Assembly (NCBI RefSeq): GCF_014822185.1
Contig: NZ_QVLR01000103.1
Span: 62,001-126,000 of the forward strand
Reading direction: 5' to 3'
DNA from: Azoarcus sp. Aa7
GTDB taxonomy: Bacteria > Pseudomonadota > Gammaproteobacteria > Burkholderiales > Rhodocyclaceae
Length of the DNA stretch: 64,000 nucleotides
The translations under genes and the position numbers were made by a program. The notes below the pieces were generated by a model. It was not told where the DNA came from and made no database searches. It worked only from the letters and a program-made list of their open reading frames with translations. Shown here one piece after another: positions 5,754 to 58,161 of this stretch (positions within the stretch are counted from its first letter, which is position 1; each line of letters opens with the position of its first letter).

Positions 5754-5767
5754 CGACCGACCGGTCG
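5754..5767. promoter_or_regulatory. Putative TetR operator CGACCG-N2-CGGTCG (site B1)
   Basis: Perfect copy of the 14-bp palindrome. A minus-strand promoter TTGACC-N17-TAATTC lies at 5789-5817, so the site falls about 15-28 bases after the expected transcription start of the flavoprotein-cytochrome operon, in a position to block elongation. It is one of only two copies outside the right-hand half of the window. Confidence 0.7.
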
Positions 5768-5788
5768 GCTTACGTCCGCCCCGATGCA

Positions 5789-5817
5789 GAATTAACGCAT
5801 TCCGGTGAAACGGTCAA
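5789..5817 (-). promoter_or_regulatory. Sigma70-type promoter for flavoprotein operon
   Basis: Reading the minus strand, TTGACC, 17 bases, then TAATTC. It faces the flavoprotein gene (start 5645), with site B1 just downstream. Confidence 0.5.
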
Positions 5818-5831
5818 CACAGGTGACGCCC

Positions 5832-5852
5832 GGCGGCCGCGAAGCGGCCGCC
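5832..5852. other. GC-rich hairpin GGCGGCCGC-GAA-GCGGCCGCC
   Basis: Near-perfect 21-bp palindrome with a 3-base loop in the 509-bp gene-free stretch 5646-6154. It lies downstream of the MFS gene (minus strand) and upstream of the flavoprotein promoter, so it may end MFS transcription. No T-run is present. The rest of this stretch holds sites B1 and A2 and no gene that I can support. Confidence 0.35.
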
Positions 5853-6051
5853 AGACAATAGAACGCGGCCGAACGGCCCCGAGGAAGTGTCCATGAACTG
5901 TCTCCTGTATCGTTATGACCGTATCGACGTCGCTGCGGCGCTCCCGCGAACGGGATCCACCGCAACCGACATGACCGGTTTTATTTTTGCTGCACAAACC
6001 CGCCGCGCCCGGAACCTGCAGCCCGAAGACCGCAACGCGGTCATCGCATAA

Positions 6052-6073
6052 AAGAACCAACACGTTGGTTTGT
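6052..6073. promoter_or_regulatory. Putative TetR operator, ACAAACC family (site A2)
   Basis: Inverted repeat with core AACCAA-CACG-TTGGTT, aligning with sites A3 and A4 (AACC, central CACG, TTSGTTTGT). It lies between the MFS gene end (6155) and the flavoprotein gene, about 400 bases upstream of the latter. Which promoter it serves is not clear. Confidence 0.5.
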
Positions 6074-6154
6074 TTTTATGAGAGTACGCCTAATGACCCC
6101 ATTTGCCAAGTGCCCTTCCAAAAAAATGTTCGCCCTGCTGGCGAGGCTCTGCAG

Positions 6155-7339
6155 TCAGGGACGCAGGCGCGCGCGGGCGAGCAGGATGCCGACGAATGCC
6201 ACCCCGCTTGCCGTCAAGGCGGCAGCGGTTCCGAAACGCTCCGCGACGCTTCCCCACAATACGCTGCCGAACGCGCCCGATCCCTGAAAGACCACCAGGA
6301 ACAGCCCCAACGCGCGGGCGCGCGCCGCGTCGGGAATATCCACCTGCATCGCGCCGATGCCGGCATTGACGACCATGACCCACGCCGCGCCGGTCATCCA
6401 GACGAGCACGAGGAGCACCTCCCTGCTGTGCGCGCGTGCTATGGCGAGGGTCGTCGCGGCGCAAACCAGTATGGCGCAGCCCACCACGGCCTCGCGTCCG
6501 TAACGGCGCGTCAAGGTCCCCAGCAGCGCCGCGCCGGTCGCCGCACCGACGCCGGAGGCCGCCACCAGGAATCCGTACGCCGGCGCATCCCCCCCGAGGC
6601 GTTCGCGCACCAGCGCGGGCAACAGCGCGATCAGACCCGCCCCGCTGGCAACGAACAGGCCGACCCGCAACAGGTGCAGGCGGCAGGGGCGCGAGGCGCG
6701 GGCAAGCCCGACGATATCGCCCAGCCCGGAGGCCCGCGCCGCGGGCGACGCGGCAGCGATGTGGCCGAGCGGGTCGAGAAAATGAATCATCGCGATGACG
6801 GCGGCGAAACCGGCCACCGCACCGCCGAACACGGCGCTGCTGCCGTACCCCGCGATCACCACGCCGGCTATCGCGGGCGCCGCAGCCCGCGCGAGATTGT
6901 AGGGAATGGTCGCCAGGCTGATCGCATCGGAAAGATGCTCCGGCGCCGCCGCGCGGCAATGAGCGGAATGCCACGCCGGGGCCAGCAGGGCCGACAGGCA
7001 GCCGAACAGAAAGGTCAGGCCGAGCAAGGCGGCCGGATGCACCTGCGGCGACAGGCTGACCGCCCACAACAAGGTCGCCGATACCAGCATGCAGCACTGC
7101 ACGGTCAGCACATAGCGCCGCAGCGCGAACCGGTCGGCCATGATTCCGCCGGCCAGCGCGAACAGACACGCCGCGAGGCTGCTTGCAGCCGGCACCAGCG
7201 CCACCAGGAGCGGCGACGGCGTCAGCGAGACCATCAGCCACGAAACGCCGACCGTCTGCATCCACACCGCGAAATACATGACACACCCGCTCGTCCACAG
7301 CAGGCGGAAATTGCGCTCGCGCAGGGGAGCGAAACTCAT
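6155..7339 (-). CDS. MFS transporter (EntS/MFS_3 type)
   Basis: A 394-residue membrane protein with the 12-helix pattern of the major facilitator superfamily. The N-terminal FAPLRERNFRLLWTSGCV is typical of the MFS_3/EntS-like branch, in which the cytoplasmic N-terminus reads F..L....FR.L...... The loop between helices 2 and 3, GGIMADRFALRRYV, is the MFS motif A (G-x3-D-R-x-x-R-R). It follows the TetR gene at 97 bases and is the last gene of the minus-strand operon that begins at the OYE-type reductase. I infer export of, or tolerance to, a pathway compound; import is not excluded. Confidence 0.8.
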   Translation of the reverse strand: MSFAPLRERNFRLLWTSGCVMYFAVWMQTVGVSWLMVSLTPSPLLVALVPAASSLAACLFALAGGIMADRFALRRYVLTVQCCMLVSATLLWAVSLSPQVHPAALLGLTFLFGCLSALLAPAWHSAHCRAAAPEHLSDAISLATIPYNLARAAAPAIAGVVIAGYGSSAVFGGAVAGFAAVIAMIHFLDPLGHIAAASPAARASGLGDIVGLARASRPCRLHLLRVGLFVASGAGLIALLPALVRERLGGDAPAYGFLVAASGVGAATGAALLGTLTRRYGREAVVGCAILVCAATTLAIARAHSREVLLVLVWMTGAAWVMVVNAGIGAMQVDIPDAARARALGLFLVVFQGSGAFGSVLWGSVAERFGTAAALTASGVAFVGILLARARLRP

Positions 7340-22349: not shown

Positions 22350-22376
22350 ATTATAGCTCAGCCGACCGGTCGGTCG
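22350..22376 (-). promoter_or_regulatory. Operator CGACCG-N2-CGGTCG (site B2) on the MDR promoter
   Basis: A perfect palindrome at 22363-22376. A minus-strand TATAAT lies at 22350-22355, so the site covers the spacer and -35 region of the promoter for the MDR gene (start 22236). The -35 itself is poor. Confidence 0.7.
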
Positions 22377-35588: not shown

Positions 35589-35627
35589 GCCTTGCTCCCT
35601 ATTCCTGTTGTCGCCTGTCAGCGGTTG

Positions 35628-41662: not shown

Positions 41663-42348
41663 GTGACGGAATCGAATGCCCTGCTCCAGTCGGAGCTACT
41701 GAAACAGCTCGCACCCTTTACGCGTTCGGGGTATGCCCTGTTCCGCGAGGTGATCGAAACCGATGGCGCACTGCCCGCAAGACTCAAGTGCCTGTTTGCC
41801 GCGGTCGCAGCGTGCAATCGTGGCTACAGGGAGCTCGCGCGCAGCGAGCTGGAACGCGCCGCGGCGCTCGGCCTGCCGCTCGAGGAGGCGGCCAGCGGAC
41901 TGATCCTGCTGAGCAGCCTGCGTGGCGAAGGTGCGGCACTCGCATTCGACGCCCTGCTCCGCGCCGTGTATCCGCAGCAGCAGGCAAGCGTGCCGGATGC
42001 GCCGCTGGTGCGCGCCAACCCCGGCGAAGCCGAAGCGAACTTCAAGGCCTACTTCGGCACCATCCCGCCTGCGCTGGCCACTCTGCTCAAGCTCGCACCA
42101 AAAGGTGCGGACGGCTACTTCCTGATGCGCAAGGGCACCATCGACTGCAACCAGCTCGACCGCAAGGCCGCCGAGCTGATGCTGGTCGCCGTGCTCGCAT
42201 CCGACTACAGCCCGATGGCCGCCACCCACATCCGCGCCGCGCGCGCGGTCGGCGCGACCGACGAGGAGCTGGCCGAGGCCATTCTGTGCGCGATCCCCTG
42301 CGCCGGCATCGCCGCGTGGATGGGTGCCGGCGTGCTGCTGGAGGCCCA

Positions 42349-42352
<4 letters not shown>
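41663..42352 (+). CDS. Carboxymuconolactone decarboxylase-family protein, Cys-less tandem type
   Basis: A 229-residue protein with two CMD-like modules: LPARLKCLFAAVAACNRGYRELA near residue 40 and KAAELMLVAVLASDYSPMAATHIRAA near residue 175. The second keeps Glu and His, but the Cys pair of AhpD-type peroxidases is replaced (SDYSPMAATH), so a thiol-redox role is unlikely. It is clearly paralogous to the gene at 50061. Its stop overlaps the start of the FadJ-like gene as ATGA. The reaction is unknown; isomerase or decarboxylase chemistry on a pathway acid is possible. Confidence 0.82.
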
Positions 42353-44442
<2,090 letters not shown>

Positions 44443-44493
44443 GCGCCGGCCACAACTTTCCTCACCCACCAACCACTACAGGGAGCGCACAAG

Positions 44494-45696
44494 ATGCGTG
44501 ACGCGGTAATCGTTTCCGTCGCCCGCACCCCGATCGGCAAGGCCTATCGCGGTGCATTCAACAACACCCAGGGCCAGGCCCTGGCCGCGCACGTCGTGCG
44601 GGCCGCCCTCGACCGCGCCGCGGTCGAATCCGACGCCGTCGACGACGTCATCATGGGCTGCGCGATCCAGCAGGGCACCACGAGCTTCAACGTCGCCCGC
44701 CAGGCCGCCCTGCGCGCCGGCCTGCCGGTCAGCGTGCCCGGCATGACCATCGACCGCCAGTGCGGCTCGGGCCTGATGGCAATCGCCACCGCGGCCAAGC
44801 AGATCATCGTCGACGGCATGAATGTCGCGGTCGCCGGCGGCGTGGAATCCGTGTCGCTGGTGCAGAACGAGCACTACAACATGTTCCGCATCAAGGACCC
44901 GGTGCTCGATGAACGCGTCCCGGCACTCTACATGTCGATGCTCGAAACCGCCGAGATCGTCTCGCAGCGCTACGGCATCAGCCGCGAGCGCCAGGACGAG
45001 TTCGCCCTGCGCTCGCAGCAGCTCACCGCCCGGGCGCAGGCCGAAGGTCGCTTCGACGGCGAGATCGTGCCGATGGAGTCGGTCATGGCGCGCTTCGACA
45101 AGGCGAGCGGCAACACCGTGTTCGAGACGGTCACCCTCGACCGCGACGAAGGCAACCGCCCGCAGACGACGCTGGAAGACCTCACCAAGCTGCAGCCGGT
45201 GTTCAACGGCGGGCAGATCCTCAAGGAAGGCCGTTACGTCACCGCGGGCAACGCCTCCCAGCTCTCCGATGGCGCCGCGGCATTGGTGCTGATGGAAGCC
45301 GGCGAAGCGGCGCGACGCGGACTCACCCCGCTCGGGCGCTATCGCGGCATGGCGGTCGCCGGCTGCAACCCCGACGAGATGGGCATCGGCCCGGTCCTCG
45401 CCGTGCCCAAGCTGCTCGCGCAGGCGGGCCTGAAGGTCGAGGACATCGACCTGTGGGAGCTCAACGAAGCCTTCGCGTCGCAGGTGCTGTACTGCCGCGA
45501 CACGCTGGGCATCCCCGACGAGCGCATGAACGTCTCCGGCGGCGCAATCGCCATCGGCCACCCCTATGGCATGTCCGGCGCGCGCATGACCGGCCACATC
45601 CTGCTCGAAGGCCGCCGCCGCAAGGCAAAATACGGCGTTGTCACGATGTGTGTCGGCGGAGGTATCGGCGCGGCGGGCCTGTTCGAAATTTTCTGA
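44494..45696 (+). CDS. Acetyl-CoA acetyltransferase family thiolase
   Basis: A 400-residue thiolase with an intact active site: Cys90 in [12 protein letters not shown], His in [12 protein letters not shown] and Cys in [25 protein letters not shown] is in place of the common NEAFAAQ. It ends the CMD-FadJ-thiolase operon and should cleave the 3-ketoacyl-CoA made by the fusion enzyme. It differs well from the thiolase at 19603, so the two may serve different chain or ring stages. Confidence 0.93.
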
Positions 45697-45744: not shown

Positions 45745-45758
45745 CGACCGACCGGTCG
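45745..45758. promoter_or_regulatory. Putative TetR operator CGACCG-N2-CGGTCG (site B5)
   Basis: A perfect palindrome at about +4 to +17 of the promoter at 45707-45734. It heads the operon that contains the third TetR gene (49419), which fits autoregulation. Confidence 0.75.
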
Positions 45759-45824: not shown

Positions 45825-46622
45825 ATGGAATTGGAAAAGGACGTCATTCAGTACGAAGTTGCCCCCAACGGCGTTGCCACGATCTGGCTCAATCGCCCGC
45901 ACAAGCGCAACTGCGTGAGCCCCCAGCTGTTGAAGGAACTCGAGAAGGCCGTCGATCGCGCCTCCGAGGACAAGGAAGCCTTGGCCGTCGTGTTCCGCGG
46001 CCGCGCCAACACCTTCTGCTCGGGCGCCGACCTCGACCTGCTGGTCAGCCCGGTGCTGCAGGAGACCACGACCTCGCTGCAACTGGCAATCGATTCCGCG
46101 CGCACCTTCGACAAGATCTTCAACATGAAGAAGCCCACCATCGCGGCCGTTGAAGGTTTCGCGGTTGCCGGCGGTTTCGAGCTGATGATCTCCTGCGACT
46201 TCGCGCTCGCCGCCAACGAAGCCAAGATCGGCGACTTCCACATCCGCCGCGCGCTGTTCGGCGGTGCGGGCCCGATCTACCGCCTGCCGCGCATGATCGG
46301 CATGCGTCGTTCGAAGGAGCTGATGCTCACCGGCAAGCTGCTCACCGGCGTGCAGTGCGCCGATTGGGGCCTGGTGAACGCCGCCGCGCCGCAAGCCGAG
46401 TTCGACAAGCTGATCCAGGACTTCTGCGCGCCGCTGATCGACAAGAGCCCGTTCTGCATGTGGATGACCAAGATGGCGTTGAACCGCGGCCTCGACGCGG
46501 ATACCAACTCCCTGATCACCCTCGAAACCATGACCTGCAACGTGGTCCATCACTCGGAAGACGCCAAGGAAGGCGTGCGCGCGTTCCTCGACAAGCGCGC
46601 TCCGAAGTGGACCGGTCACTGA
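45825..46622 (+). CDS. Crotonase-family enoyl-CoA hydratase/isomerase
   Basis: A 265-residue crotonase. The first catalytic Glu is present in EGFAVAGGFELMISCDFALA. The second (usual I-G-x-P-E) is replaced in AKIGDFHIRRALFGGAG. The CoA site FCSGADLDLL is present. Single-Glu crotonases are often isomerases or act on unusual substrates, so simple hydration is not certain. It is the first gene of the crotonase-EthD-SDR-ligase-TetR operon, with operator B5 about 70 bases upstream. Confidence 0.85.
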   Translation: MELEKDVIQYEVAPNGVATIWLNRPHKRNCVSPQLLKELEKAVDRASEDKEALAVVFRGRANTFCSGADLDLLVSPVLQETTTSLQLAIDSARTFDKIFNMKKPTIAAVEGFAVAGGFELMISCDFALAANEAKIGDFHIRRALFGGAGPIYRLPRMIGMRRSKELMLTGKLLTGVQCADWGLVNAAAPQAEFDKLIQDFCAPLIDKSPFCMWMTKMALNRGLDADTNSLITLETMTCNVVHHSEDAKEGVRAFLDKRAPKWTGH

Positions 46623-46643
46623 TCCGCAGAGGCAGATAGGCAT

Positions 46644-46979
46644 ATGTCAGCAAGCTTGGTCATCCTGGCGACCCGCCCCCCCGAGTGGTCGCGCGAGCAA
46701 TTCACCACCTGGTGGCGCAGCGAGCACGCGGACTACGCGAAGAAGCTCCCCGGCCTCGCCGCCTACCGCCACGGCGAGGTGACGTTCGACTACGATCACC
46801 CGGAAGGGCCCGCCTGGGATGGCCATGCCGTGCTGACCTTCGCCTCGCGCGAAGTGCTCGATGCGGCACTTCATTCCCCCGAGTGGGCCGCCGCCGTGGC
46901 CCACGTCGGCAAGATGAAAGGAAAACGGATCGCCCTGATCACCGAGGAGCTCGACCTCCTCGCCGGTCACGGCGCCTGA
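46644..46979 (+). CDS. EthD-family small protein
   Basis: A 111-residue ferredoxin-like dimeric alpha-beta barrel protein of the EthD type (LATRPPEWSREQFTTWWRSEHADYAKKLPGL, where W-x3-H-A is the family core). EthD proteins accompany catabolic oxidoreductases and have no agreed activity; some relatives are isomerases or lactone-forming enzymes. It is encoded between the crotonase and SDR genes. Confidence 0.8.
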   Translation: MSASLVILATRPPEWSREQFTTWWRSEHADYAKKLPGLAAYRHGEVTFDYDHPEGPAWDGHAVLTFASREVLDAALHSPEWAAAVAHVGKMKGKRIALITEELDLLAGHGA

Positions 46980-47004
46980 AACCCGGCATCGCAAGGATAA
47001 CAAG

Positions 47005-47802
47005 GTGAGCGAAAACTTTTCCCCGGGCTTCGTCGCCCGCCAGTTTCGCCTCGACGGCAAGGTCGCACTCATCACCGGAGGCCGCGGCGCGCTCGCCGAG
47101 GCCATCGCGGCGACCCTCGCCGACCTCGGCTGCAAGGTCGCGCTGGCCTCGCGCCACCAGCAGGAATGCGCCGACATGGCGGCGAGCATTGCCGAGCGCT
47201 TCTCGACCACGGCCATCGGCCTGCGCTGCGACATCGCCAACGAGGAAGAGGTCGAAGCGGCCGTCGCTGCGACCGTCGAGCAGTTGGGCGGCCTCGACAT
47301 CCTGATCAACAACGCCGGCGCCTCGTGGTGGGGTCTGCCCGAGGAAATCCCCCTCTCGGGCTGGCGCAAGGTCGTCGACGTCAACCTCACGGGCACCTTC
47401 CTCGCGTGCCGCCATGCCGCGCGCCACATGATCGGCAAGGGCGGCGGCTGCATGGTCAACATCGCCTCGGTAGGCGCCTTCCTCTCCTACCGGCCGGACG
47501 CTGGCCAGGTCGTGCCCTACACGACGACCAAGGCCGCGATGGTGCATCTCACCAGCGACCTCGCCGCGCAGTGGGCGCATCACGGTATCCGCGTCAATGC
47601 GGTCGCGCCGGGCTCGGTCGAGACGGGCATGACCGAAACACTGACGGACACCATCCAGCAGAAGCTGATCGACGGCATCCTGCTGCGCCGCTTCGGCAAG
47701 CCCGCCGAAGTCGCCCCGACCGTTGCGCTGCTGGTGTCGGACGCCGGGAGCTTCATCACCGGCCAGACCTTCCTTGTCGATGGAGGGCAGTCGATTGCCT
47801 GA
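47005..47802 (+). CDS. Short-chain dehydrogenase/reductase
   Basis: A 265-residue SDR with a slightly divergent cofactor loop (TGGRGALAEAIAATL), NNAGASW, Ser in NIASVGAFLSY, and Y-x3-K in VPYTTTKAAMVHL; C-terminal FITGQTFLVDGGQSIA. The active site is complete. The GTG start has AAGGA 7 bases upstream. The AMP-ligase gene begins inside its last codons. Confidence 0.88.
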   Translation: MSENFSPGFVARQFRLDGKVALITGGRGALAEAIAATLADLGCKVALASRHQQECADMAASIAERFSTTAIGLRCDIANEEEVEAAVAATVEQLGGLDILINNAGASWWGLPEEIPLSGWRKVVDVNLTGTFLACRHAARHMIGKGGGCMVNIASVGAFLSYRPDAGQVVPYTTTKAAMVHLTSDLAAQWAHHGIRVNAVAPGSVETGMTETLTDTIQQKLIDGILLRRFGKPAEVAPTVALLVSDAGSFITGQTFLVDGGQSIA

Positions 47803-49330
47803 CCGCAGCCCCGCACAATTCTCCGCCGACGGCCTGACCTGGACCGACGCTTCGCTGTGGCGGCAGTTCTCGGCGCTGGCCGAGGCCGCCCCGGACGCGC
47901 TGGCCGTGGTCGGCGCCGACGGACGCCGCTGGAGCCGCGGCGAACTCCGCACGATGGCGCAAGCCGTCACCGCAGCCCTGCTCGCGGCCGGCGTACGTCC
48001 GCACGACCGCATCATGCTGCAGGGGCGCAAGAACGCACCGGTACTGGCTGCCGCGCTCGGAATCTCGGGCGCGCAGGCGGTCATCTGCCCGTTCACGCCC
48101 GACCTCGGCGCCGCTGAACGGGCGGTGCTCGACGAACGCCTCGGTCATGTCGCCGTGATCCGCGACAGCGACGGTGAAGCCATCCCCGGTGTGCCCGGTC
48201 TGCACCTGCAGTACCGCGGGCGACAACCGCAGCACGGCGCCGACGAACGCGATGCACAGACGGCGATGATCGGCTTCACCTCCGGCACCACCGGCGTGCC
48301 CAAGGGCGTGATGCACTCGTCGGCGGCGATGAACTACACGGTGCGCGCCTGCGAACAGATCGCCGGCCTCGCGCCGGACGACGCCATCCTCGGCGTCGTG
48401 CCCCTCGGCAGCGCCCCCGGATTCACCTTCACCGCGCATTTCGCGCTGGCCCTCGGCCACCCGCTGGTCGTCGTGGATCCGTGGGACGCACTGGAAACGC
48501 TGAAAAGGATCGAGGAATACGGCTGCCGCTGGGGCATCTGCGTGCCCACGCACCTCGCAACGCTGATCGAGGTGGCCCGCAGCGGCCGCTGGACACGGCC
48601 CAGTCCGCTCAAGGTGCTCGGCGTCGGCGGCAGCGCGATGACACCCGAGCTGATCCGCGACGCGAAGGACCTGCTCGGCATCAGCGCGCTGCGCATGTTC
48701 GGCATGTCGGAATGCATGGGGCACGCCTCGACGCGTCCCGACGACACGCCGGAGCGCCTGTGCCACTCCGACGGCAAGCCCTTCCCCGGCACCCGCGACG
48801 AAGCCTTCGATGGCGAACAACGGATGTTGCCGCGCGAACAGCGCGGCCAGGCCGGGGTGCGCGGACCGTCGCTGTTCCTCGGCTATTGCCGCGGCCTCGG
48901 CGACCAGGAATACCGTCTCACCGATGACGGCTACTTCCTCACCGGCGACGAGATCATCTGCGATGCCGACGGTTACCTCAAGGTCGTCGGGCGCATCAAG
49001 GACCAGATCATCCGCGGCGGATACAACATCGATCCCGCCGAGGTCGAGGCGGCCCTGCTGCGCCATCCCGCGATCGCCCAGACCTCCGTCATCGCGGTGC
49101 CCGAACAGCGCCTCGGCGAGCAGGCCTGCGCGGTGTGCGCGATCCGTGACGGTCATCAGGCGCCCACGCTGGAGGAGATCAAGGACCACCTCGCAACGAT
49201 CGGCCTGTCGAAGAAGAAATGGCCGGAGCATTTGCTCGTGGTACCGGATTTCGTGTATACGACAACGGGAAAGATCGACAAGAAACGCCTGTCCAGGATG
49301 GTCGCATCCGAGCTGGGTCTCGGCGGGTAG
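47795..49330 (+). CDS. AMP-dependent acyl-CoA synthetase
   Basis: An ANL-superfamily ligase of about 511 residues. Motifs: MIGFTSGTTGVPKGVMHS (P-loop), MFGMSECMG, GYFLTGDEIICDADGYLKVVGRIKDQI and the C-terminal catalytic Lys in YTTTGKIDKKRLSRM. All parts are intact. It should activate a carboxylic acid to its CoA ester with ATP, the probable entry step. TTG at 47795 is chosen because GGAGGG stands 7 bases upstream and the alternative ATG at 47780 has none; either way it overlaps the SDR gene. Confidence 0.9.
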   Translation: MPDRSPAQFSADGLTWTDASLWRQFSALAEAAPDALAVVGADGRRWSRGELRTMAQAVTAALLAAGVRPHDRIMLQGRKNAPVLAAALGISGAQAVICPFTPDLGAAERAVLDERLGHVAVIRDSDGEAIPGVPGLHLQYRGRQPQHGADERDAQTAMIGFTSGTTGVPKGVMHSSAAMNYTVRACEQIAGLAPDDAILGVVPLGSAPGFTFTAHFALALGHPLVVVDPWDALETLKRIEEYGCRWGICVPTHLATLIEVARSGRWTRPSPLKVLGVGGSAMTPELIRDAKDLLGISALRMFGMSECMGHASTRPDDTPERLCHSDGKPFPGTRDEAFDGEQRMLPREQRGQAGVRGPSLFLGYCRGLGDQEYRLTDDGYFLTGDEIICDADGYLKVVGRIKDQIIRGGYNIDPAEVEAALLRHPAIAQTSVIAVPEQRLGEQACAVCAIRDGHQAPTLEEIKDHLATIGLSKKKWPEHLLVVPDFVYTTTGKIDKKRLSRMVASELGLGG

Positions 49331-49418: not shown

Positions 49419-50060
49419 ATGAAAAGTCCAGTCAAGCCGGCGGAGCCGCCAAAAAAGAAGCGGGCCCGCACCACGACGGCGGCACATGACGAAAAGCGCC
49501 ACGAGATCATCGCGGCCTGCGCCTCGCTGTTCGACCGCGTCGGCTATCACGGCACCTCGATGCAGATGCTCGCGGACGAGGTCGGCCTCGGCAAGCCGAC
49601 GCTGTACCACTATTTCGCCAGCAAGGGCGACATCCTCTACGAAATGCACCAGCTGCACATCGACGCGATGATCGGCGGCCTGCAGGGGGATTCGCAGCAG
49701 GACGACGCGCAGCCGGCCGAGCTGCTCGAACGCGCCTGCGCCTCGACGCTGCGCGAGATCGCGCTGCACCCCGGTTACGTGCGCGCCTTCATGGACCACT
49801 ACGCCGAACTGGAAGACAAGCAGCGCGCCGAGATGCGGCACCGGCGGCGCGAGTACTTCACGCGCATCACCAACATCATCCGCGACGGGATGAGCAAGGG
49901 TCACTTCCGCGAGATGGATCCCGAGCTGGCCACCCTCACCTTCGTCGGCATGTGCAACTGGGCCTACAAGTGGTATCCGCGCATGGCGGATGAGGTGCCG
50001 CCGGAGAAAATGGCCAAATCCATGTGCCAGATTCTCCTCGACGGCTTCAACAAGCGCTGA
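49419..50060 (+). CDS. TetR-family regulator (candidate binder of CGACCG sites)
   Basis: A 213-residue protein. A Lys/Arg-rich lead (about 20 residues) precedes the DNA-binding domain: HEIIAACASLFDRVGYHGTS, MQMLADEVGLGKPTLYHYFASKGDIL. The C-terminal domain has LHPGYVRAFMDHYAELEDKQRAE. It closes the operon with operator B5 and lies at the centre of the CGACCG sites, so it is the best candidate for that repressor. Its TGA abuts the TCA of the convergent CMD gene with no gap. A ligand such as a pathway CoA ester is usual for such TetR proteins. Confidence 0.9.
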   Translation: MKSPVKPAEPPKKKRARTTTAAHDEKRHEIIAACASLFDRVGYHGTSMQMLADEVGLGKPTLYHYFASKGDILYEMHQLHIDAMIGGLQGDSQQDDAQPAELLERACASTLREIALHPGYVRAFMDHYAELEDKQRAEMRHRRREYFTRITNIIRDGMSKGHFREMDPELATLTFVGMCNWAYKWYPRMADEVPPEKMAKSMCQILLDGFNKR

Positions 50061-50847: not shown

Positions 50848-52353
50848 CTAGTCGAGATTGAACCAGACGCTCTTGACGTGAGTGAACTCCTCGATCGACA
50901 CCGCGCCGAGACTGCGGCCGAAGCCCGAAGCCTTCACCCCGCCGTAAGGGACCGATGTCTCGTTGAGCTGGTAGGCATTGACCCACACGGTGCCGACCTT
51001 GAGGCGCTGCGAGGCCCGGTGCGCACGCACGACATCGCGCGTCCACACGCCTGCAGCCAGACCGAACTCGGTGGCGTTCGCGATCGCCCAAGCCTCGTCA
51101 TCCGAGTCGAAGGGAATCACCGCCATCACCGGGCCGAAGATCTCTTCCTGCGCGATGGTCATGTCGTTGCTCACCCCGGTGAAGATGGTGGGCTGGAAGA
51201 AATACCCGTCGGCATCATGCCGCCGGCCGCCGAGCGCGACGGTTGCACCCTCGGTCTTGCCGATCTCCACGTAGCGGCTGACCTGGTCGAGCTGCTGTTG
51301 CGAGATCACCGGGCCGACATGCGTGTCGGCGTCGAAGCACGAGCCGACCTTCAGCGCCCGCGACGCCTCGACCATGCGCGCGACGAACTCGTCGTGGATC
51401 GAACGGTGCACCAGCACGCGCGATCCCGCCGTGCAGATCTGCCCCGAATGGCCCCACACGGCCCACGCCGCAGCCATCGAGGCCCGTTCGATATCGGCAT
51501 CCGCAAAGACCAGCTGCGGACTCTTGCCACCGAGCTCCAGCGACACGCGCTTCAGTCGGGCCGCCGCGGCAGCCTGGATGCGCTTGCCGGTCGCAACCGA
51601 ACCGGTGAAGCTGATCGAATCGACCTCCGGATGATCCACCAGCGCAGCGCCGACGGTGTGGCCGAGCCCCTGCACGACGTTCACCACGCCCGCCGGCACG
51701 CCCGCCTCCATGCACAGCATGCCGAACAGCAAGGCCGTCAGCGGCGTCTGCTCGGCCGGTTTGAGCACCACCGAGTTGCCGCACGCGAGCGGCGCAACCA
51801 CCCCCAGCGACACGGCCGACGGGGCATTCCACGGCATGATCACGCCGCAGACGCCGACCGGCTCGCGCACCTGCTGCACGACCAGATTCGAGCCGGTGGG
51901 CGACATCGCCCCCTCGATCTTGCTCGGCCAGCCGGCATAGTAGTTGGTGACGTCGATGCCGAACTGCACGAAGAAAGGCGTCTGCGCACGGATGATGCCG
52001 CCGTCGAGCATGTCGAGATCCATCAGCACCTCGCGGTGCTCCTCGAGCAGCGCACCGAGACGCCGCAGCACGGCCTCCTTCTTCATCGGCGGCAGGTTGC
52101 GCCAGCGACCGTCCTCGAAAGCCCTGCGCGCCGCCTGCGCCGCCCGGTCCACCTCGGCGACACCGCCGAGTGCCACGCGGACGAACTCCCGCCCGGTGTT
52201 GGGATCGATGACCGGCATCGTGGCGCCATCGGCGGAGAGCACCAACTCGCCATCGATCAGATGGCCGAGCCGCGTTTCCGTCAGAAAACGCCGGGTCCTT
52301 GGCGACAGGGCGTGATCGCCGACCGACACCTTCCCGCTAACCGCATCATTCAT
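50848..52353 (-). CDS. NAD(P)-dependent aldehyde dehydrogenase
   Basis: A 501-residue ALDH with catalytic Glu in SLELGGKSPQLVF and nucleophilic Cys in WGHSGQICTAGSRVLVH. The cofactor-site Asn is in PWNAPSAVSLG, and AQEEIFGPVMAVIPF is present. It should oxidise an aldehyde to the acid that the ligase can then activate. The start at 52353 has GGAGGAG upstream. A near-perfect promoter and operator B6 lie about 170 bases upstream, leaving a long leader. Confidence 0.92.
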   Translation of the reverse strand: MNDAVSGKVSVGDHALSPRTRRFLTETRLGHLIDGELVLSADGATMPVIDPNTGREFVRVALGGVAEVDRAAQAARRAFEDGRWRNLPPMKKEAVLRRLGALLEEHREVLMDLDMLDGGIIRAQTPFFVQFGIDVTNYYAGWPSKIEGAMSPTGSNLVVQQVREPVGVCGVIMPWNAPSAVSLGVVAPLACGNSVVLKPAEQTPLTALLFGMLCMEAGVPAGVVNVVQGLGHTVGAALVDHPEVDSISFTGSVATGKRIQAAAAARLKRVSLELGGKSPQLVFADADIERASMAAAWAVWGHSGQICTAGSRVLVHRSIHDEFVARMVEASRALKVGSCFDADTHVGPVISQQQLDQVSRYVEIGKTEGATVALGGRRHDADGYFFQPTIFTGVSNDMTIAQEEIFGPVMAVIPFDSDDEAWAIANATEFGLAAGVWTRDVVRAHRASQRLKVGTVWVNAYQLNETSVPYGGVKASGFGRSLGAVSIEEFTHVKSVWFNLD

Positions 52354-52508: not shown

Positions 52509-52522
52509 CGACCGGTCGGTCG
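52509..52522. promoter_or_regulatory. Putative TetR operator CGACCG-N2-CGGTCG (site B6)
   Basis: A perfect palindrome just downstream of the promoter at 52531-52558 (minus strand), covering the expected start of ALDH transcription. Confidence 0.75.
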
Positions 52523-53153: not shown

Positions 53154-53175
53154 CATAATATCGACCGTCCGGTCG
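53154..53175. promoter_or_regulatory. Operator CGACCG-N2-CGGTCG (site B7) beside a -10 element
   Basis: The palindrome at 53162-53175 follows a plus-strand CATAAT (53154-53159). It lies 76 bases before the MDR gene. No clear -35 is seen. Confidence 0.7.
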
Positions 53176-53250: not shown

Positions 53251-54270
53251 ATGACCCGCGGCGAAAACAGGCAAATCCTGCTGCAACGAAGACCGGACGG
53301 CGCACTGCGCGAAAGCGACTTCGCGCTCGTCGCCTCCCCCATGCCGGAAATCCGGGCGGGCCAGTTTCTGCTCAGGAATGCGTGCTTTTCGCTCGACGCC
53401 GGTTTCCGCAAGTGGATGAACGCGGGCGCCGACGACAACTACCTCAGCGCGATGGCGCTGGACGCGCCGGTGCAAAGCATCGTGCTGGGCCATGTAACGG
53501 AGTCGCTGCACGCGGACTTTCCCGTGGGCAGCCTCGTACTGGCGCGCGCGTCATGGGAAGAGTTCAGCGCGCTGGACGGTTCGGACTTTGCGCAAAAACT
53601 CGAACACGACGGCAGCTTCCCTCTGCACGAATTCGTCGCCACGCTCGGCCCCACAGGCATGACCGCCTATTTCGGCCTGCTCGACGTCGGCCGGCCGCGC
53701 GCCGGCGACACCGTGCTGGTGAGTGCGGCCGGCGGCGCGGTCGGATCGGTGGTCGGCCAGATCGCGAAAATTCTCGGCTGCCGCACCGTCGGCATCACCA
53801 GTTCGCCCGAAAAGTGCCGCTGGCTCACCGACGAGCTCGGCTACGATGCCGCCATCAACCACCGCGATCCCGCGGGTCTCGCCGCCGCCATGCGCGAGAC
53901 GATGCCGGACGGTTTCGACGTGTATTTCGACAACGTCGGCGGCGCGATGCTCGACGAGGCCGTCCGGCACATGAAGCTCGGTGCGCGCGTGGTGCTGTGC
54001 GGCGCCATCGCCGACTACGACCACAACGACCGCGAATCCGGCATGTTCCACATGTGGGAGTTCATCGTCAAACGCGCGAGCGCCGCCGGCTTCATGTTCT
54101 CCGACTACGTCGCGCGCTACCCGGAGGCGGTGCGCGACCTGTCGCAGTGGCTGCGCGACGGCCGGCTGAAGAGCGTCGTCGACATCCGCCACGGCATCGC
54201 CGAGACGCCGAAGGCGTTTTGCGACATGCTCTCCGGTGCCAGCCGCGGCAAGTGCATCGTCCAGCTGTAA
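53251..54270 (+). CDS. NADP-dependent MDR reductase (CurA/leukotriene-B4-dehydrogenase-like)
   Basis: A 339-residue zinc-free MDR enzyme, paralogue of the gene at 21205. Signatures: TLGPTGMTAYFGLLDVG, VSAAGGAVGSVVGQIAKILG (NADP site), YFDNVGGAMLDEAV. ATG 53251 has AGGAGGAG just upstream. It should reduce the double bond of an enone or enal. It is a single-gene unit facing a convergent SnoaL gene, with operator B7 in front; its paralogue also has such a site. Confidence 0.88.
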   Translation: MTRGENRQILLQRRPDGALRESDFALVASPMPEIRAGQFLLRNACFSLDAGFRKWMNAGADDNYLSAMALDAPVQSIVLGHVTESLHADFPVGSLVLARASWEEFSALDGSDFAQKLEHDGSFPLHEFVATLGPTGMTAYFGLLDVGRPRAGDTVLVSAAGGAVGSVVGQIAKILGCRTVGITSSPEKCRWLTDELGYDAAINHRDPAGLAAAMRETMPDGFDVYFDNVGGAMLDEAVRHMKLGARVVLCGAIADYDHNDRESGMFHMWEFIVKRASAAGFMFSDYVARYPEAVRDLSQWLRDGRLKSVVDIRHGIAETPKAFCDMLSGASRGKCIVQL

Positions 54271-54330: not shown

Positions 54331-54783
54331 CTATTCCGCGCCGGTCGTGCCGAGTCCGATATCGCCGGCCGTCTGGAACATCGCCAGCTCGCGATGCACG
54401 ATGCGCCATCCCTCGGGGCGACGCTCCAGCCGGTCGCTGTACTCCCCCCACACGGTCATGGTCTGCGCTGCCAGCGCCCCCAGGCCGACATGGATCGCCT
54501 GCAGATAGCATTTCGCCGTCGCCTTGTCGCCATTGATGGCGATGCGGAAATTCCCCAGCAAGTGCTGGGTTCGCCCGCAGGTCTGCAGCACACCGGAAAT
54601 CATGTCGCGAATCGCCTCGCGGCTGGAGAAATCGCCGATCCCCTGATACCACGCCGTCGCCTCGGGCACGAAGACCTCGTCGAGGCCCGCCCAGTCATGC
54701 TCGTCCAGCGCCAGCGCATAGCGCACCAGCACGCGCTCGATGCGCTTCTCTTCGAGCAGGGTTTCCACGGTCACGTCTGTCAT
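54331..54783 (-). CDS. SnoaL-like (NTF2-fold) protein
   Basis: A 150-residue protein: EEKRIERVLVRYALALDEHDWAGLDEVF (here RIERVLVRYALALDEHDW), FSSREAIRDMISGVLQ and GWRIVHRELAMFQTAGD are SnoaL_4 traits. No catalytic assignment is possible; relatives include dehydratases and isomerases. It is the last gene of the minus-strand operon 57957-54331. Confidence 0.8.
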   Translation of the reverse strand: MTDVTVETLLEEKRIERVLVRYALALDEHDWAGLDEVFVPEATAWYQGIGDFSSREAIRDMISGVLQTCGRTQHLLGNFRIAINGDKATAKCYLQAIHVGLGALAAQTMTVWGEYSDRLERRPEGWRIVHRELAMFQTAGDIGLGTTGAE

Positions 54784-54806
54784 GGTTGCAAGTCCCTTTC
54801 GCTGTG

Positions 54807-55568
54807 TCAGAACAGGGTGAAGCCGCCGTCCACGGCGACGGTATTGCCGTGAATGAAGCTCGCGTCGTCGCTGGCGAGGAAGGCGACCACCGCGGCCACC
54901 TCCTCGGGACGTCCCGGCCTGCCGGAAGGCGCACGCAGCTGCTTCTGAAAGTCGGCGCTGGCCTCGACAAATTCCTTGGGCATATTCTCGATCATCGGCG
55001 TCATGATCACGCCCGGCGCGATCGCCACGGCGCGGATGTTCTGCTGACCGTATTCATAGGCGATCTCCTTGGTGATCCCCACGACCGCGTGCTTGGCCGC
55101 GGTGTATTCGATGCCCGCGGTCGTGGCGATCAGCCCGGCCGTCGACGCGATGTTGATGATCACGCCGCCGCCCTGCTTGAGCATCTGGGGAATCGCCTCG
55201 CGGCAGAAGAAGAAGATGCTCTTGAGGTTCACGTTGAGCACGCGGTCCCAGGATTCATCGCTCACTTCCGCCGTCTTGACGAATTCGCCGACGATGCCGG
55301 CGTTGTTCACCAGCACGTCGATGGCGCCGAAGGTCGCGACGGTATCGTGCGCGACCCGCGCCACGTCCTCGCGCCGCGCCACGTCCGCCTGCATGGCGAC
55401 CGCCTCGCCCCGCTCCGCCGCAATGGCGGCCACCGTGTCGCGCGCCGCCGCCAGGTTGAGGTCGGCCACCACCACGCGCGCACCGTCGCGCGCGAGGCGG
55501 ATGCACATCGCGCGGCCGAGGCCCGAGCCGCCGCCGGTCACGATCGCCACCTTGTTCTGCAGTTTCAC
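54807..55568 (-). CDS. Short-chain dehydrogenase/reductase
   Basis: A 253-residue classical SDR: TGGGSGLGRAMCIRL, NNAGIVG, Ser in NIASTAGLIA, Y-x3-K in IEYTAAKHAVVG, and FIHGNTVAVDGGFTLF at the end. The GTG at 55568 is preferred because GAGGAG stands 7 bases upstream; an ATG at 55589 would add seven residues. It follows the zinc ADH gene in the operon. Confidence 0.88.
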   Translation of the reverse strand: MKLQNKVAIVTGGGSGLGRAMCIRLARDGARVVVADLNLAAARDTVAAIAAERGEAVAMQADVARREDVARVAHDTVATFGAIDVLVNNAGIVGEFVKTAEVSDESWDRVLNVNLKSIFFFCREAIPQMLKQGGGVIINIASTAGLIATTAGIEYTAAKHAVVGITKEIAYEYGQQNIRAVAIAPGVIMTPMIENMPKEFVEASADFQKQLRAPSGRPGRPEEVAAVVAFLASDDASFIHGNTVAVDGGFTLF

Positions 55569-55651
55569 TGTCGTCTCCTCGCTGTTCATGAATTTCCGCG
55601 CCCGGTCCGCACCGTCCGGCATCCGGCCGGTACGGCAGCCGCGGCGAAACC

Positions 55652-56701
55652 TCAGTTCAGGCCGGGCACGAGCACGCCGCGCCCGTGCACCTTGCCCGCG
55701 CGCATGTCCTGCAACACGCGCGGCCCGTCTTCGATGCCGAAATAGTGGGCGTCGACCTGGATGCGCCCGTATTGCGCCAGCGCGATGACTTCCAGCAGCT
55801 CCGCACGCGAACCCCACAAGGGCGTGCATACCGAGCAGCCGAAAGGCAGGGTCATCTGGCTCAACTGGAGGACGCCGCCGCCCACGCCGACCACGGTGAG
55901 CTGGCTGTTGCGTCCGACCAGCTGCACGGCCAGGTCGAGCGTCGGCTGCAGGCCGACGAAGTCCAGCACCAGCGCCGCCCGGCGCGGCCCGCAGAAGGCG
56001 CGGATGGTCTCGGCCGCCTGCGCGCCGTTGCGCGAATTCACGACGAGGTCGGCGCCGAGCTGGCGCGCGTGTTCGAGGCGCCCGTCGTCGAGGTCCACCG
56101 CGACGATGCGCGACCCGCACATCACCCGCAACAACTGGACCGCCATGTGGCCGAGGCCGCCGACACCGATCACCACCACGTTGGCGTCCGGCGTCAGCAG
56201 CGGCAGGGCGCGCTTGATGGCGTGGTACGGTGTCAGTGCCGCATCGGTGAGCGGCGCGGCGGCGCGCGGGTCGAGCGAACCCAGCGGCACCAGCAGCCGC
56301 GGCGACGGCACGAGCATGTATTCGGCCATGCCGCCGTCGAGACCGAAGCCGCCACCGGCCTGCGGGACGTCGTCGGCGTTCTCGCAGTAGTTTTCCATCG
56401 ACGACTGGCACGGGCGGCAATGGCCGCAGCCCCAGTAGCCGTACACCGCCACCGGGTCGCCCTCGCGCAGGCCCTGCACCCCCGCCCCCCACGCCGCCAC
56501 CCAGCCGGCATTTTCGTGACCGAGCGTGAACGCGGGCTTGCTGCCCGCGCCCTGTGCGCCATGGTCCAGCACATGCAGGTCGGAATGGCACACCCCGGCG
56601 CCACCGATTTTCACCAGAACCTCGCCCGGCCCGGGGATGGGCACCGGCACGTCTTCCACGACCGGCGGGAGCCCTGCCCCGACATAACGGAGTGCTTTCA
56701 T
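55652..56701 (-). CDS. Zinc-dependent alcohol dehydrogenase
   Basis: A 349-residue MDR enzyme of the NAD-dependent ADH type. The catalytic zinc site is GGAGVCHSDLHV and LGHENAGWV; the structural-zinc Cys are in GCGHCRPCQSSMENYC; the NAD loop is VIGVGGLGHMAVQLLRV. All ligands are present. An early motif ends VDAHYFGIEDGP near the C-terminus. It should oxidise a primary or cyclic alcohol. It lies between the SRPBCC and SDR genes. Confidence 0.9.
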   Translation of the reverse strand: MKALRYVGAGLPPVVEDVPVPIPGPGEVLVKIGGAGVCHSDLHVLDHGAQGAGSKPAFTLGHENAGWVAAWGAGVQGLREGDPVAVYGYWGCGHCRPCQSSMENYCENADDVPQAGGGFGLDGGMAEYMLVPSPRLLVPLGSLDPRAAAPLTDAALTPYHAIKRALPLLTPDANVVVIGVGGLGHMAVQLLRVMCGSRIVAVDLDDGRLEHARQLGADLVVNSRNGAQAAETIRAFCGPRRAALVLDFVGLQPTLDLAVQLVGRNSQLTVVGVGGGVLQLSQMTLPFGCSVCTPLWGSRAELLEVIALAQYGRIQVDAHYFGIEDGPRVLQDMRAGKVHGRGVLVPGLN

Positions 56702-56723
56702 GTTCGTCTCCTGGCCGGGGCCA

Positions 56724-57179
56724 TCACTGACCGGCGCGGCGGGTCACGGCGGCCGCAAGGCCCGCGAACATCAACTCGTAGGCGATGCGCAACCACGCCT
56801 CGGCATCGTCGGGCTTGCCCGATTCGGTCATGAACTCGCTCGCATAGTTGAGGCGGGAACGGTCGTCCGGGAGCGCCTCGATGCGGCCGGTGGCCTGGTA
56901 GTGCGTGATCCCCATCGGCTTGTTGCCGACGATCGACAGGCTGTAGGTGAGCTTCGCCGGATCGAGGGCATCGAGCCGCTCCGAGACGGGCGCATCGTAG
57001 CCCTTGTTGTAGATGTGGCGGATCATGCCGACGCCCTCGCCTTCCATATCCACCCGGTCGATCTGCACGGCCGGGTCGTGCCTCGGCCACCAGCGTTCGA
57101 TGTGGGCGAAGTCCTGCAGGAAGTCCCACAGCACCGCGGCGGGGGCATCGAACTCGTGACTCGTGGCGATCTTGTACAT
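56724..57179 (-). CDS. SRPBCC (START/polyketide-cyclase-like) protein
   Basis: A 151-residue helix-grip protein: YKIATSHEFDAPAAVLWDFLQDFAHIERWWP at the start, VGMIRHIYNKGYDAPVSERLDALDP in the middle and a C-terminal long helix (AEAWLRIAYELMFAGLAAAV). It binds hydrophobic ligands in this family, so a carrier or cyclase-like role for a lipophilic intermediate is inferred. Start 57179 gives the normal family length. Confidence 0.82.
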   Translation of the reverse strand: MYKIATSHEFDAPAAVLWDFLQDFAHIERWWPRHDPAVQIDRVDMEGEGVGMIRHIYNKGYDAPVSERLDALDPAKLTYSLSIVGNKPMGITHYQATGRIEALPDDRSRLNYASEFMTESGKPDDAEAWLRIAYELMFAGLAAAVTRRAGQ

Positions 57180-57237
57180 GGTTGTCGGCTTCCTCAAGAA
57201 TGGTTTGGACGGCATGACCGATGGTCCGCGGTCCGGC

Positions 57238-57957
57238 TCAAGCCGCACCACCGATGACGCTCGACGCGTTGTCGAGCACGATCTGGGCGCCATTGACGTG
57301 GCGCGACTCGTCGGAGGCGAGGAACAGCACCATGTTGGCGACGTCCTCGGGCTGACCGATGCCGGGAACGCCCTGTCCGGTCACCGCTTCGAGCAGGGGC
57401 GTGGAGATCATGCCGGGAAGGATCGCGTTGCAGCGCACCGGGTAGTTCTTGTCGCGGCAGTGCGCGGCGATGGTATGCGTCATCGCCGCGATGGCGCCCT
57501 TGGCCGCCGCATAGGTAATGACGCCGGGAAAACCGCGGATGGCCGACAGCGACGAGATGTTGATGATCGAGCCGCCACGCGCCTTCATCGCGGCGATGGC
57601 CTGTTTGCAGCCGAGGAAGGTGCCCTCGGCATGGATCGCGTTGAGCAGACGGTACTGCTCCAGCGTGGCGGTCTCGATGTCTGCCGGCACGACGATGCCG
57701 GCGTTGTTGACGAGAATGTCGAGGTGGCCGTAGCGGTCGAGGGTGTGCGCCGCGACCGCCTGCCAGTCGGCCTCGCTGCGCACGTCATGACGCAGGAAGT
57801 CGCAGTCCAGTTCGCGCGCGAGTGCGCGTCCGGCTTCCTCGCTGACGTCGGTGACGACGACTTTCGCGCCTTCCCGCGCAAGTACGACCGCATCCGCCCG
57901 TCCCAGTCCCGAAGCGCCCCCCGTGATGATTGCCACCTTGCCGCTGACACGTCCCAT
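57238..57957 (-). CDS. Short-chain dehydrogenase/reductase
   Basis: A 239-residue classical SDR: TGGASGLGRADAVVL, NNAGIVV, Ser in NISSLSAIRG, Y-x3-K in ITYAAAKGAIAAM. It is complete. It is the first gene of the minus-strand operon SDR-SRPBCC-ADH-SDR-SnoaL, with operator B8 about 85 bases upstream. Likely a secondary-alcohol dehydrogenase. Confidence 0.88.
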   Translation of the reverse strand: MGRVSGKVAIITGGASGLGRADAVVLAREGAKVVVTDVSEEAGRALARELDCDFLRHDVRSEADWQAVAAHTLDRYGHLDILVNNAGIVVPADIETATLEQYRLLNAIHAEGTFLGCKQAIAAMKARGGSIINISSLSAIRGFPGVITYAAAKGAIAAMTHTIAAHCRDKNYPVRCNAILPGMISTPLLEAVTGQGVPGIGQPEDVANMVLFLASDESRHVNGAQIVLDNASSVIGGAA

Positions 57958-58034
57958 TTGCTTCCCCCGTGTGGTCTCTCGAGTGTGCCCGGCGACGGAT
58001 TGCGAGCGCTGCCCGGTCCCGGGATTCGATGGAC

Positions 58035-58056
58035 AGAATATCCGACCGTCCGGTCG
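58035..58056 (-). promoter_or_regulatory. Operator CGACCG-N2-CGGTCG (site B8) on SDR operon promoter
   Basis: The palindrome at 58043-58056 lies just upstream of a minus-strand TATTCT (58035-58040), in the spacer. The -35 is weak. It controls the operon starting at 57957. Confidence 0.68.
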
Positions 58057-58132
58057 GCCGTCCACAGGATTCGCCTGTGCAGTGCACAAGAAACAGGATA
58101 GGCTGTTTTTCTCGCAAACGTCCCGTGGCATC

Positions 58133-58161
58133 TTGACGTCCGACCGGACGGTCGATACACT
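58133..58161 (+). promoter_or_regulatory. Promoter TTGACG-N17-TACACT with operator B9 in the spacer
   Basis: TTGACG (58133-58138) and TACACT (58156-58161) are 17 bases apart, with CGACCG-GA-CGGTCG at 58141-58154 between them. It faces the molybdopterin oxidoreductase gene (58336). With B8 it forms a second divergent control region like that at 41.4-41.5 kb. No other feature is seen in 57958-58335. Confidence 0.75.

What the first reader, a model, noticed from the sequence alone, without database searches (positions are those of the whole stretch)
5754..58154. Nine perfect copies of CGACCG-N2-CGGTCG define an island-wide regulon
The 14-bp palindrome occurs at 5754, 22363, 41424, 41514, 45745, 52509, 53162, 58043 and 58141. 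Both 6-bp arms are perfect in all nine copies, and every copy lies in a gap upstream of a gene. With 12 fixed bases, far fewer than one copy is expected by chance in 64 kb even at high GC. The sites precede the flavoprotein-cytochrome pair, both MDR paralogues, the APH-ACAD operon, the CMD-FadJ-thiolase operon, the crotonase-ligase-TetR operon, ALDH, the SDR operon and the molybdopterin enzyme. The likely binder is the TetR at 49419.
Basis: partly seen in the sequence, partly recalled or inferred. Interest (0 to 1): 0.82.

Follow-up and report, generated by a model that had tools for sequence, protein, structure and literature searches.

The report
One repressor's switches across catabolic island
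Nine near-identical 14-letter DNA palindromes sit in front of degradation genes in an Aromatoleum bacterium and are very probably the binding sites of a repressor encoded among those genes, so that one protein could switch most of a 131-kb set of genes together.

Summary
Confirmed, and stronger than reported. All nine CGACCG-N2-CGGTCG copies exist (0.07 expected). The genome holds 16; 14 lie on this 156-kb contig, all intergenic; the other two look like chance. In the genus (Aromatoleum) the seven genomes with an orthologue of the 49419 TetR (78% identity or more) are exactly the seven with most sites. In the stretches fetched round it, 73 of 73 sites are intergenic and many recur before orthologous genes; orthologues in two Burkholderiales MAGs and an Erythrobacter also lie near sites. 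In 41 of 73 a TTGACA/G -35 box lies exactly 2 nt away, so the palindrome fills the sigma-70 spacer: a repressor layout. The TetR gene ends an operon behind one of the sites. The rival PaaR has its own similar operator, TTGACCGNNCGGTCAA, found in 17 of 17 genus genomes upstream of paaA. Of 20 TetR-type loci only these two carry KPxLYHY in the recognition helix; the operators differ mainly in the outer base pair. Binding, inducer and substrate are untested. [quoted passage not shown]

The parts
5754..5767 (-). operator, before the 3885-5645 flavoprotein and 3487-3885 CxxCH protein
   Evidence: no clear -35/-10 pair found; kept before the same gene in G000 and G005
22363..22376 (-). operator, before the 21205-22236 ADH/MDR gene; TATAAT follows 7 nt later, no good -35 box
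   Evidence: same gene in G000, G005, G016
41424..41437 (-). operator inside a TTGACA-N18-AATCTT spacer, serves the APH-MFS-ACAD genes (41165 downwards)
   Evidence: 7 of 7 genomes; arms invariant
41514..41527 (+). operator inside a TTGACA-N17-TAGGCT spacer, serves the CMD-FadJ-thiolase genes (41663 upwards)
   Evidence: 7 of 7 genomes; arms invariant
45745..45758 (+). operator just after a TTGACA-N16-TAAGGT promoter-like pair, serves the crotonase-EthD-SDR-ligase-TetR genes (autoregulation by position)
   Evidence: 7 of 7 genomes
52509..52522 (-). operator just after a perfect TTGACA-N16-TATAAT pair, serves the ALDH gene 50848-52353
   Evidence: site kept before the same gene in G000, G001, G005, G013, G016
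53162..53175 (+). operator before the MDR gene 53251-54270, next to a CATAAT sequence; no clear -35/-10 pair
   Evidence: site kept in G000, G001, G005, G013, G016
58043..58056 (-). operator inside a TGGACG-N18-TATTCT spacer, serves the SDR genes (57957 downwards)
58141..58154 (+). operator inside a TTGACG-N17-TACACT spacer, serves the molybdopterin enzyme 58336-60495
   Evidence: one-mismatch form in G016
49419..50060 (+). TetR-type repressor, the proposed binder (TetR_N + TetR_C_24)
45825..49330 (+). crotonase, EthD-domain protein, SDR and acyl-CoA ligase genes ahead of the TetR gene
41663..45696 (+). CMD, FadJ-like and thiolase genes (target)
33527..41165 (-). APH-type kinase, MFS, two acyl-CoA dehydrogenases (family scans) and SDR-, crotonase- and membrane-type genes (judged from N-terminus only); extent of the operon inferred
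50848..52353 (-). aldehyde dehydrogenase (target)
53251..54270 (+). MDR reductase (target)
54331..57957 (-). SDR, polyketide-cyclase-fold and SnoaL-type genes (family scans) with a second SDR and an ADH-type gene (N-terminus only); extent of the operon inferred
58336..60495 (+). molybdopterin oxidoreductase (target)
3487..5645 (-). FAD_binding_2 protein of the ketosteroid-dehydrogenase kind (below family cut-offs) plus small CxxCH protein without a Pfam match (target)
21205..22236 (-). ADH_N_2 / zinc-binding dehydrogenase (target)

Best explanation
The palindrome is the operator of the TetR-family protein encoded at 49419-50060. The dimer binds CGACCG-N2-CGGTCG placed within or against sigma-70 core promoters (most often filling the 17-18 bp between a TTGACA-like -35 box and the -10 box), so RNA polymerase cannot engage and the pathway is off. 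When the pathway substrate enters and is made into its CoA thioester, the thioester binds the repressor, it leaves the DNA, and at least 14 operators over 131 kb are freed together, including the one before the repressor's own operon. Shown by sequence: sites, position, conservation, co-inheritance, helix motif shared with PaaR. Inferred: binding, repression, release by an acyl-CoA (possibly made by the ligase in the TetR operon), and that the substrate is a hydrophobic alicyclic, terpenoid or steroid-like compound.
For: Sites cluster: 14 of 16 on one contig. The TetR orthologue is in exactly the seven of 17 genus genomes with most sites, 9-19 each against 2-8 in the other ten. 73 of 73 sites in the fetched stretches are intergenic (intergenic DNA 11-15%) and many recur before orthologous genes. 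In five aligned intergenic regions all 108 operator-arm columns are invariant, against 19-61% of the other columns. 41 of 73 sites have TTGACA/G exactly 2 nt away, against 22 of 14,065 intergenic positions of C103, 7 of those 22 being the sites themselves. The TetR is the last gene of an operon behind a site kept in 7 of 7. Two Burkholderiales MAGs (69 and 67% identity) and an Erythrobacter (49%) carry three exact intergenic sites each in the stretch held round the TetR (0.01-0.02 expected). Of 20 TetR_N loci only this one and PaaR have KPxLYHY, and PaaR's operator shares the GACCG-N2-CGGTC core. Near folds include acyl-CoA-responsive TetRs: AibR with isovaleryl-CoA, FadR with stearoyl-CoA, KstR2.
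Against: No binding, expression or inducer data. The seven genomes may form a clade, so the co-occurrence (1 in 19,448 if genomes were independent) is not seven independent events, and sites and TetR travel together as one island anyway. Only 73 of the 107 exact sites of the seven genomes lie in the stretches fetched; of the other 34 only the two in G000 were looked at, and those two look like chance. A non-carrier reaches 8 sites (G003) against 9 in the carrier G014. The -10 hexamers at the 2-nt-spaced sites match TATAAT in only 3-4 of 6 letters, and 32 of 73 sites lack the fixed -35 box; in G000 the sites at 5754, 53162 and C103:9496 show no clear promoter pair. A PaaR that reads nearly the same word is also present.
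Confidence: 0.85

Rival explanations
1. PaaR, the TetR-type repressor of phenylacetate genes elsewhere in the genome, binds the island sites, alone or together with 49419.
For: Same core GACCG-N2-CGGTC and same helix motif KPxLYHY. The published B. cenocepacia PaaR operator ACCGACCGGTCGGT also sits between -35 and -10.
Against: The operator at the paa operon in the genus is TTGACCGNNCGGTCAA: 17 of 17 genomes, once each in 16, twice in G010, with one copy 4.4-4.7 kb upstream of paaA by comparing places. In the stretches fetched from the seven carriers none of 74 intergenic GACCG-N2-CGGTC cores has T...A outside; 73 have C...G, one C...T. paaA is in all 17 genomes, the site-rich islands in seven.
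Confidence: 0.08
2. Another TetR of the contig (27785-28345 or 7437-8102) binds the sites.
For: Both lie among the sites; the 7437 gene begins 1.7 kb from site 5754.
Against: Close orthologues of both in only G005 and G016 among the six other carriers (7437 also has a 42% relative in G014), while G001, G012 and G013 keep 12, 7 and 12 sites. Neither has the KPxLYHY motif. No exact site lies in the gap just upstream of either gene.
Confidence: 0.03
3. The sites are the binder's but the protein activates, or works by looping between sites, rather than simply blocking polymerase.
For: Pairs of exact sites 79-304 bp apart in divergent regions could allow looping; a TetR-family activator, FasR, exists (name seen).
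Against: The palindrome overlaps the core promoter in most cases, where a bound dimer would block polymerase; pairs are explained by one operator per divergent promoter, each pointing to its own gene.
Confidence: 0.04

Closest known systems
PaaR, TetR-type repressor of phenylacetate degradation (Burkholderia cenocepacia; Thermus thermophilus)
   Same: TetR repressor of an acyl-CoA pathway; inverted repeat ACCGACCGGTCGGT between -35 and -10 (PMC2770484, passages); Thermus site CNAACGNNCGTTNG and phenylacetyl-CoA as effector (PMC9493321, passages); KPxLYHY also in the six Aromatoleum PaaR-like proteins looked at.
   Different: 25% identical to the PaaR-like protein of the same genome in my alignment; operator outer pair C:G instead of T:A; at least 14 operators on one contig instead of one or two per genome; different pathway.
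PfmR (TTHB023) of Thermus thermophilus
   Same: Best fold match (3vpr, 29% identity); selected consensus centred on TGACCGATCGGTCA, with CCGACCGTTCGGTAAG among its genomic sites; fatty-acid genes. A second Thermus TetR, SbtR, reads TGACYRNNYRGTCA (PMC7022988, passages).
   Different: Outer T/A preferred; nine candidate promoter sites; helix KAALYHH rather than KPTLYHY; different bacterium and pathway.
KstR2, HIP-CoA-responsive repressor of steroid catabolism
   Same: TetR; profile and fold match (4w97); CoA-thioester effector (PMC8700777, passages).
   Different: 21% identity; operator sequence differs (recalled, not tested); no steroid substrate shown here.
MbdR of Azoarcus sp. CIB
   Same: TetR repressor with 3-methylbenzoyl-CoA effector in a related denitrifier; sites overlap -10/-35 (PMC4424350, passages).
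   Different: Operator ATACN10GTAT; weak match to 4uds (E 9e-8).

Membership tests
TetR family of transcriptional regulators | N-terminal TetR_N helix-turn-helix | tested here: met
   PF00440, 53.6 bits over a 24-bit cut-off
TetR family of transcriptional regulators | all-helical TetR fold with C-terminal ligand domain | tested here: met
   AlphaFold model pLDDT 86, nine helices; 494 PDB matches at E<=0.001, the top ones TetR proteins; TetR_C_24
TetR-type repressor with palindromic operator in the core promoter | palindromic operator overlapping -35/-10 of target genes | tested here: met
   41 of 73 with TTGACA/G at a fixed 2 nt; the other 32 lie otherwise (some just after a -10 box, some unclear)
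TetR-type repressor with palindromic operator in the core promoter | protein binds the operator and represses; ligand releases it | not testable with these tools
   needs gel shift and deletion strain
PaaR | encoded with paa genes | tested here: not met
   a PaaR-like TetR lies at the end of the paa operon on C80; 49419 lies on C103 among other genes
PaaR | sequence orthology to PaaR | tested here: not met
   25% identity to the PaaR-like protein of the same genome (21%); the two coexist in one genome
KstR2 | orthology to KstR2 | tested here: inconclusive
   phmmer E 3.3e-12, behind 3dcf, 3vpr, 3ccy and AibR; no tree was made
NCBIfam named TetR regulators | match above a curated cut-off | tested here: not met
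   17 NCBIfam families, none above cut-off (best FadR 47.7 of 200 bits)

The most novel reading that the evidence does not exclude
Two TetR paralogues in one cell, sharing one recognition-helix motif and one 10-bp core word, are kept apart genome-wide by essentially a single outer base pair per half-site: C:G marks at least 14 operators of the island repressor, T:A marks the paa operator. The island would then be a natural, replicated experiment on how paralogous repressors avoid crosstalk while one of them comes to control a 131-kb regulon.
Probability: 0.5. Interest if true: 0.6.

Novelty: new member of a known kind. Interest (0 to 1): 0.45.

Why it matters
It gives a candidate control protein, its operator and a list of promoters it should control for a large unexplored catabolic island, so the pathway's inducer and substrate could be found by reporter assay, and it offers a clean test of how two paralogous repressors with nearly the same operator stay separate. 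I saw no description of this regulon in the held open-access library, by the term searches; for three of these only the top 10-20 listed papers were seen, as titles and abstract beginnings, so this is weak evidence of absence.

Tried and rejected
Tried and set aside: (1) Chance: rejected. (2) A repeat without regulatory role: rejected, since sites are promoter-placed and kept while flanks drift. (3) The two other TetRs of the contig: no matching distribution. (4) PaaR as sole binder: its own operator differs. (5) The one-mismatch level as a wider regulon: 177 against 134 for the reversed control, so not used genome-wide; but two one-mismatch sites recur at fixed places (before the 79119 ACAD in 7 of 7 genomes; before the 70463 FdhD-type gene in 5 of 7). 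(6) Naming the substrate: not settled; DUF1302, DUF1329 and YCF48-like genes with an RND-like pump judged from its N-terminus, a ChsH2-type plus thiolase-like pair, a ketosteroid-dehydrogenase-like flavoprotein and APH+ACAD modules point loosely to a hydrophobic alicyclic, terpenoid or steroid-like compound. (7) Orthologues elsewhere: order sample 0 of 398 others at 1e-30 (query A1), family sample 2 of 198 others at 1e-35, both in the window's genus (query A2), phylum sample 0 of 397 others at 1e-35 (query A2); these searches scored only up to 7 or 15 candidates per genome. (8) A two-sequence BLASTP against PaaR was given the wrong strand and was discarded; the alignment replaced it. (9) The fold search in pdb_via did not run.

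Gene calls are from my own simple codon-usage script, not a published gene finder; starts may be off, and gene kinds not covered are judged from the N-terminal sequence.
Full report
What was checked. The nine copies are real and exact (nine found, 0.07 expected). Spacing is specific: N2 gives nine, spacings 5 and 8 one each, the others from 0 to 14 none. The window is bases 62001-126000 of contig C103 (156,325 bp) of a 5.39-Mb genome in 107 contigs. Genome-wide there are 16 exact sites: 14 on C103, from 9496 to 140627, and one each on C1 and C18; the reversed pattern occurs once. The C1 copy is inside a glycosyltransferase-like gene and the C18 copy lies in a 43-bp gap between two co-oriented genes. 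Given 16 sites, 14 or more on a contig that is 2.9% of the genome has a probability of about 3e-20. It is not gap-free: no exact site lies between C103:9798 and 67754.

The host. Orthologues of the 49419 TetR at 80-96% identity lie in named Aromatoleum genomes (A. tolulyticum, A. toluclasticum, A. diolicum, A. toluolicum), whose contig lengths equal those of G016, G005, G013 and G001, which genome search places in the window's genus.

Which protein? The genome has 20 TetR_N loci, three on C103. In the 17 genus genomes, exact-site counts are 16, 19, 2, 8, 6, 19, 7, 6, 5, 3, 6, 7, 11, 14, 9, 5, 19 for G000 to G016; the reversed controls are 1, 1, 2, 6, 2, 1, 2, 2, 3, 2, 10, 4, 3, 4, 6, 2, 2. The 49419 orthologue (78-96% identity over 212-213 residues in the six others) is in G000, G001, G005, G012, G013, G014, G016, exactly the seven with the most sites; elsewhere the best long match is 33%. 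The 27785 and 7437 TetRs have close orthologues in only G005 and G016. This is suggestive, not proof: the carriers may be related, and sites and TetR are inherited as one island. Among genes kept at 60% identity or more in all six other fetched regions, 49419 is the only one that looks like a DNA-binding protein, judged from Pfam or NCBIfam where scanned and otherwise from N-terminal sequence.

Conservation. I fetched the regions round the TetR in the seven genomes. They hold 73 exact sites (14, 10, 12, 7, 11, 12, 7 for G000, G016, G013, G012, G005, G001, G014), of 107 in the whole genomes; of the remaining 34 only the two in G000 were looked at. All 73 are intergenic, although intergenic DNA is 11-15% of the regions. 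The sites before the APH and CMD genes, the TetR operon and the 77269/79119 acyl-CoA dehydrogenase pair are present in 7 of 7; others are in fewer, for example the 5754 site before the same gene only in G000 and G005. In five aligned intergenic regions every one of 108 operator-arm columns is invariant (84 in exact sites, 24 in the two conserved one-mismatch sites), against 19-61% of the other columns; three alignments hold seven genomes, the other two only three and four. Outside the genus, two Burkholderiales MAGs (69 and 67% identity) and an uncultured Erythrobacter (49%) each have three exact, intergenic sites in the 8.6-16.6 kb held (0.01-0.02 expected).

Position. In 41 of 73 sites a TTGACA or TTGACG hexamer ends exactly 2 nt before the palindrome, against 22 of 14,065 intergenic positions of C103, 7 of which are the sites themselves; in G000 it is 7 of 14. 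A -10-like hexamer follows at a spacing of 17 or 18, though these match TATAAT in only 3 or 4 of 6 letters, so the palindrome fills the spacer. The direction of that promoter tells which gene of a divergent pair each site serves: 41424 the APH genes, 41514 the CMD genes, 58043 the SDR genes (with a weaker TGGACG box), 58141 the molybdopterin enzyme. At 52509 a perfect TTGACA-N16-TATAAT precedes the operator and points at the ALDH gene; at 45745 a TTGACA-N16-TAAGGT pair precedes it and points at the TetR operon. At 5754, 53162 and C103:9496 no good -35/-10 pair was found. The arrangement as a whole fits repression by exclusion of RNA polymerase.

The PaaR comparison. A full-text search for the palindrome led to PaaR: in B. 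cenocepacia the TetR-type PaaR represses paa genes through ACCGACCGGTCGGT placed between -35 and -10 (PMC2770484, passages). I therefore looked at the paa operon of six genus genomes: each has a PaaR-like TetR gene behind the paa genes and TTGACCG(AC/GT)CGGTCAA in front. A genus-wide search found that 16-mer in 17 of 17 genomes, once in 16 and twice in G010, with a copy 4.4-4.7 kb upstream of paaA in each, by comparing places. So the two operators share GACCG-N2-CGGTC and differ outside it. In the fetched regions of the seven carriers 74 intergenic copies of the core exist: 73 flanked C...G, one C...T, none T...A; three further copies are in coding sequence. The proteins are 25% identical yet, of the 20 TetR_N loci in the genome, only these two carry KPxLYHY in the recognition helix; the motif is invariant in the seven orthologues and in the MAG and Erythrobacter proteins. 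PfmR of Thermus, the best fold match (3vpr), reads a related word, TGACCGATCGGTCA at its centre (PMC7022988, passages), with KAALYHH in its helix. This links protein and DNA independently of gene position, as an argument by resemblance.

Mechanism and effector. Near solved structures include AibR with isovaleryl-CoA, KstR2 and FadR with stearoyl-CoA, but also DarR, which binds cyclic di-AMP. The TetR operon holds an acyl-CoA ligase. I infer that a CoA thioester of the pathway is the inducer. The substrate is open. Hints: DUF1302, DUF1329 and YCF48-like genes on the contig, kinds that together with an RND pump form AmeABCD of a monoterpene island in Castellaniella (PMC6394551, passages); a ChsH2-type protein next to a thiolase-like protein; a flavoprotein of the ketosteroid-dehydrogenase kind, below that family's cut-off.

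Verdict. It is a new member of a known kind, with an unusually large and clean regulon and an appealing paralogue-separation question. No binding or expression was tested.

Noticed in passing
L016 (C103) 3964-7298, window 16748-19393 and 30201-31684: Recurring pairs or triplets of a small protein, an APH-type kinase and (in the first two) an acyl-CoA dehydrogenase; the first set is Pfam-tested (DUF6285, APH, acyl-CoA dehydrogenase) with a phosphatase-like gene beside it, the others judged by similarity or N-terminus. They resemble the LvaABC route for 4-hydroxyacyl-CoA (PMC6692424, passages). LvaB being DUF6285 is my recollection.
   Followed up: partly
L017 region, C103:28662-32816 (outside the window): Genes that look like F420 biosynthesis (CofGH/FbiC-, CofC- and CofD-like, judged from N-terminal sequence only) with LLM-type neighbours; no exact operator nearby.
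   Followed up: no
C103:141022 (before the 79119 ACAD) and C103:132256 (before the 70463 FdhD-type gene): Conserved one-mismatch operators at fixed places, in 7 of 7 and 5 of 7 genomes, so divergent partners also carry a weaker site.
   Followed up: partly
window 1-3203 plus about 3.5 kb upstream of it, and window 62084 onwards to C103:130813: Two sets with an RND-like pump, YCF48-, DUF1329- and DUF1302-type genes (second set Pfam-tested except the pump; first by N-terminus). The second stands behind an operator with TTGACA-N17-TATTCT; the first lies 283 bp downstream of the 3487 gene on the same strand, so it might be read from the 5754 promoter.
   Followed up: partly
G010:C27:33552: A second copy of the PaaR-type operator, the only genome of 17 with two.
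   Followed up: no
G034:C1:3189703-3191684: Five copies of CGACCGCGCGGTCG spaced 492 bp apart, perhaps a tandem coding repeat; a caution for counting palindromes.
   Followed up: no
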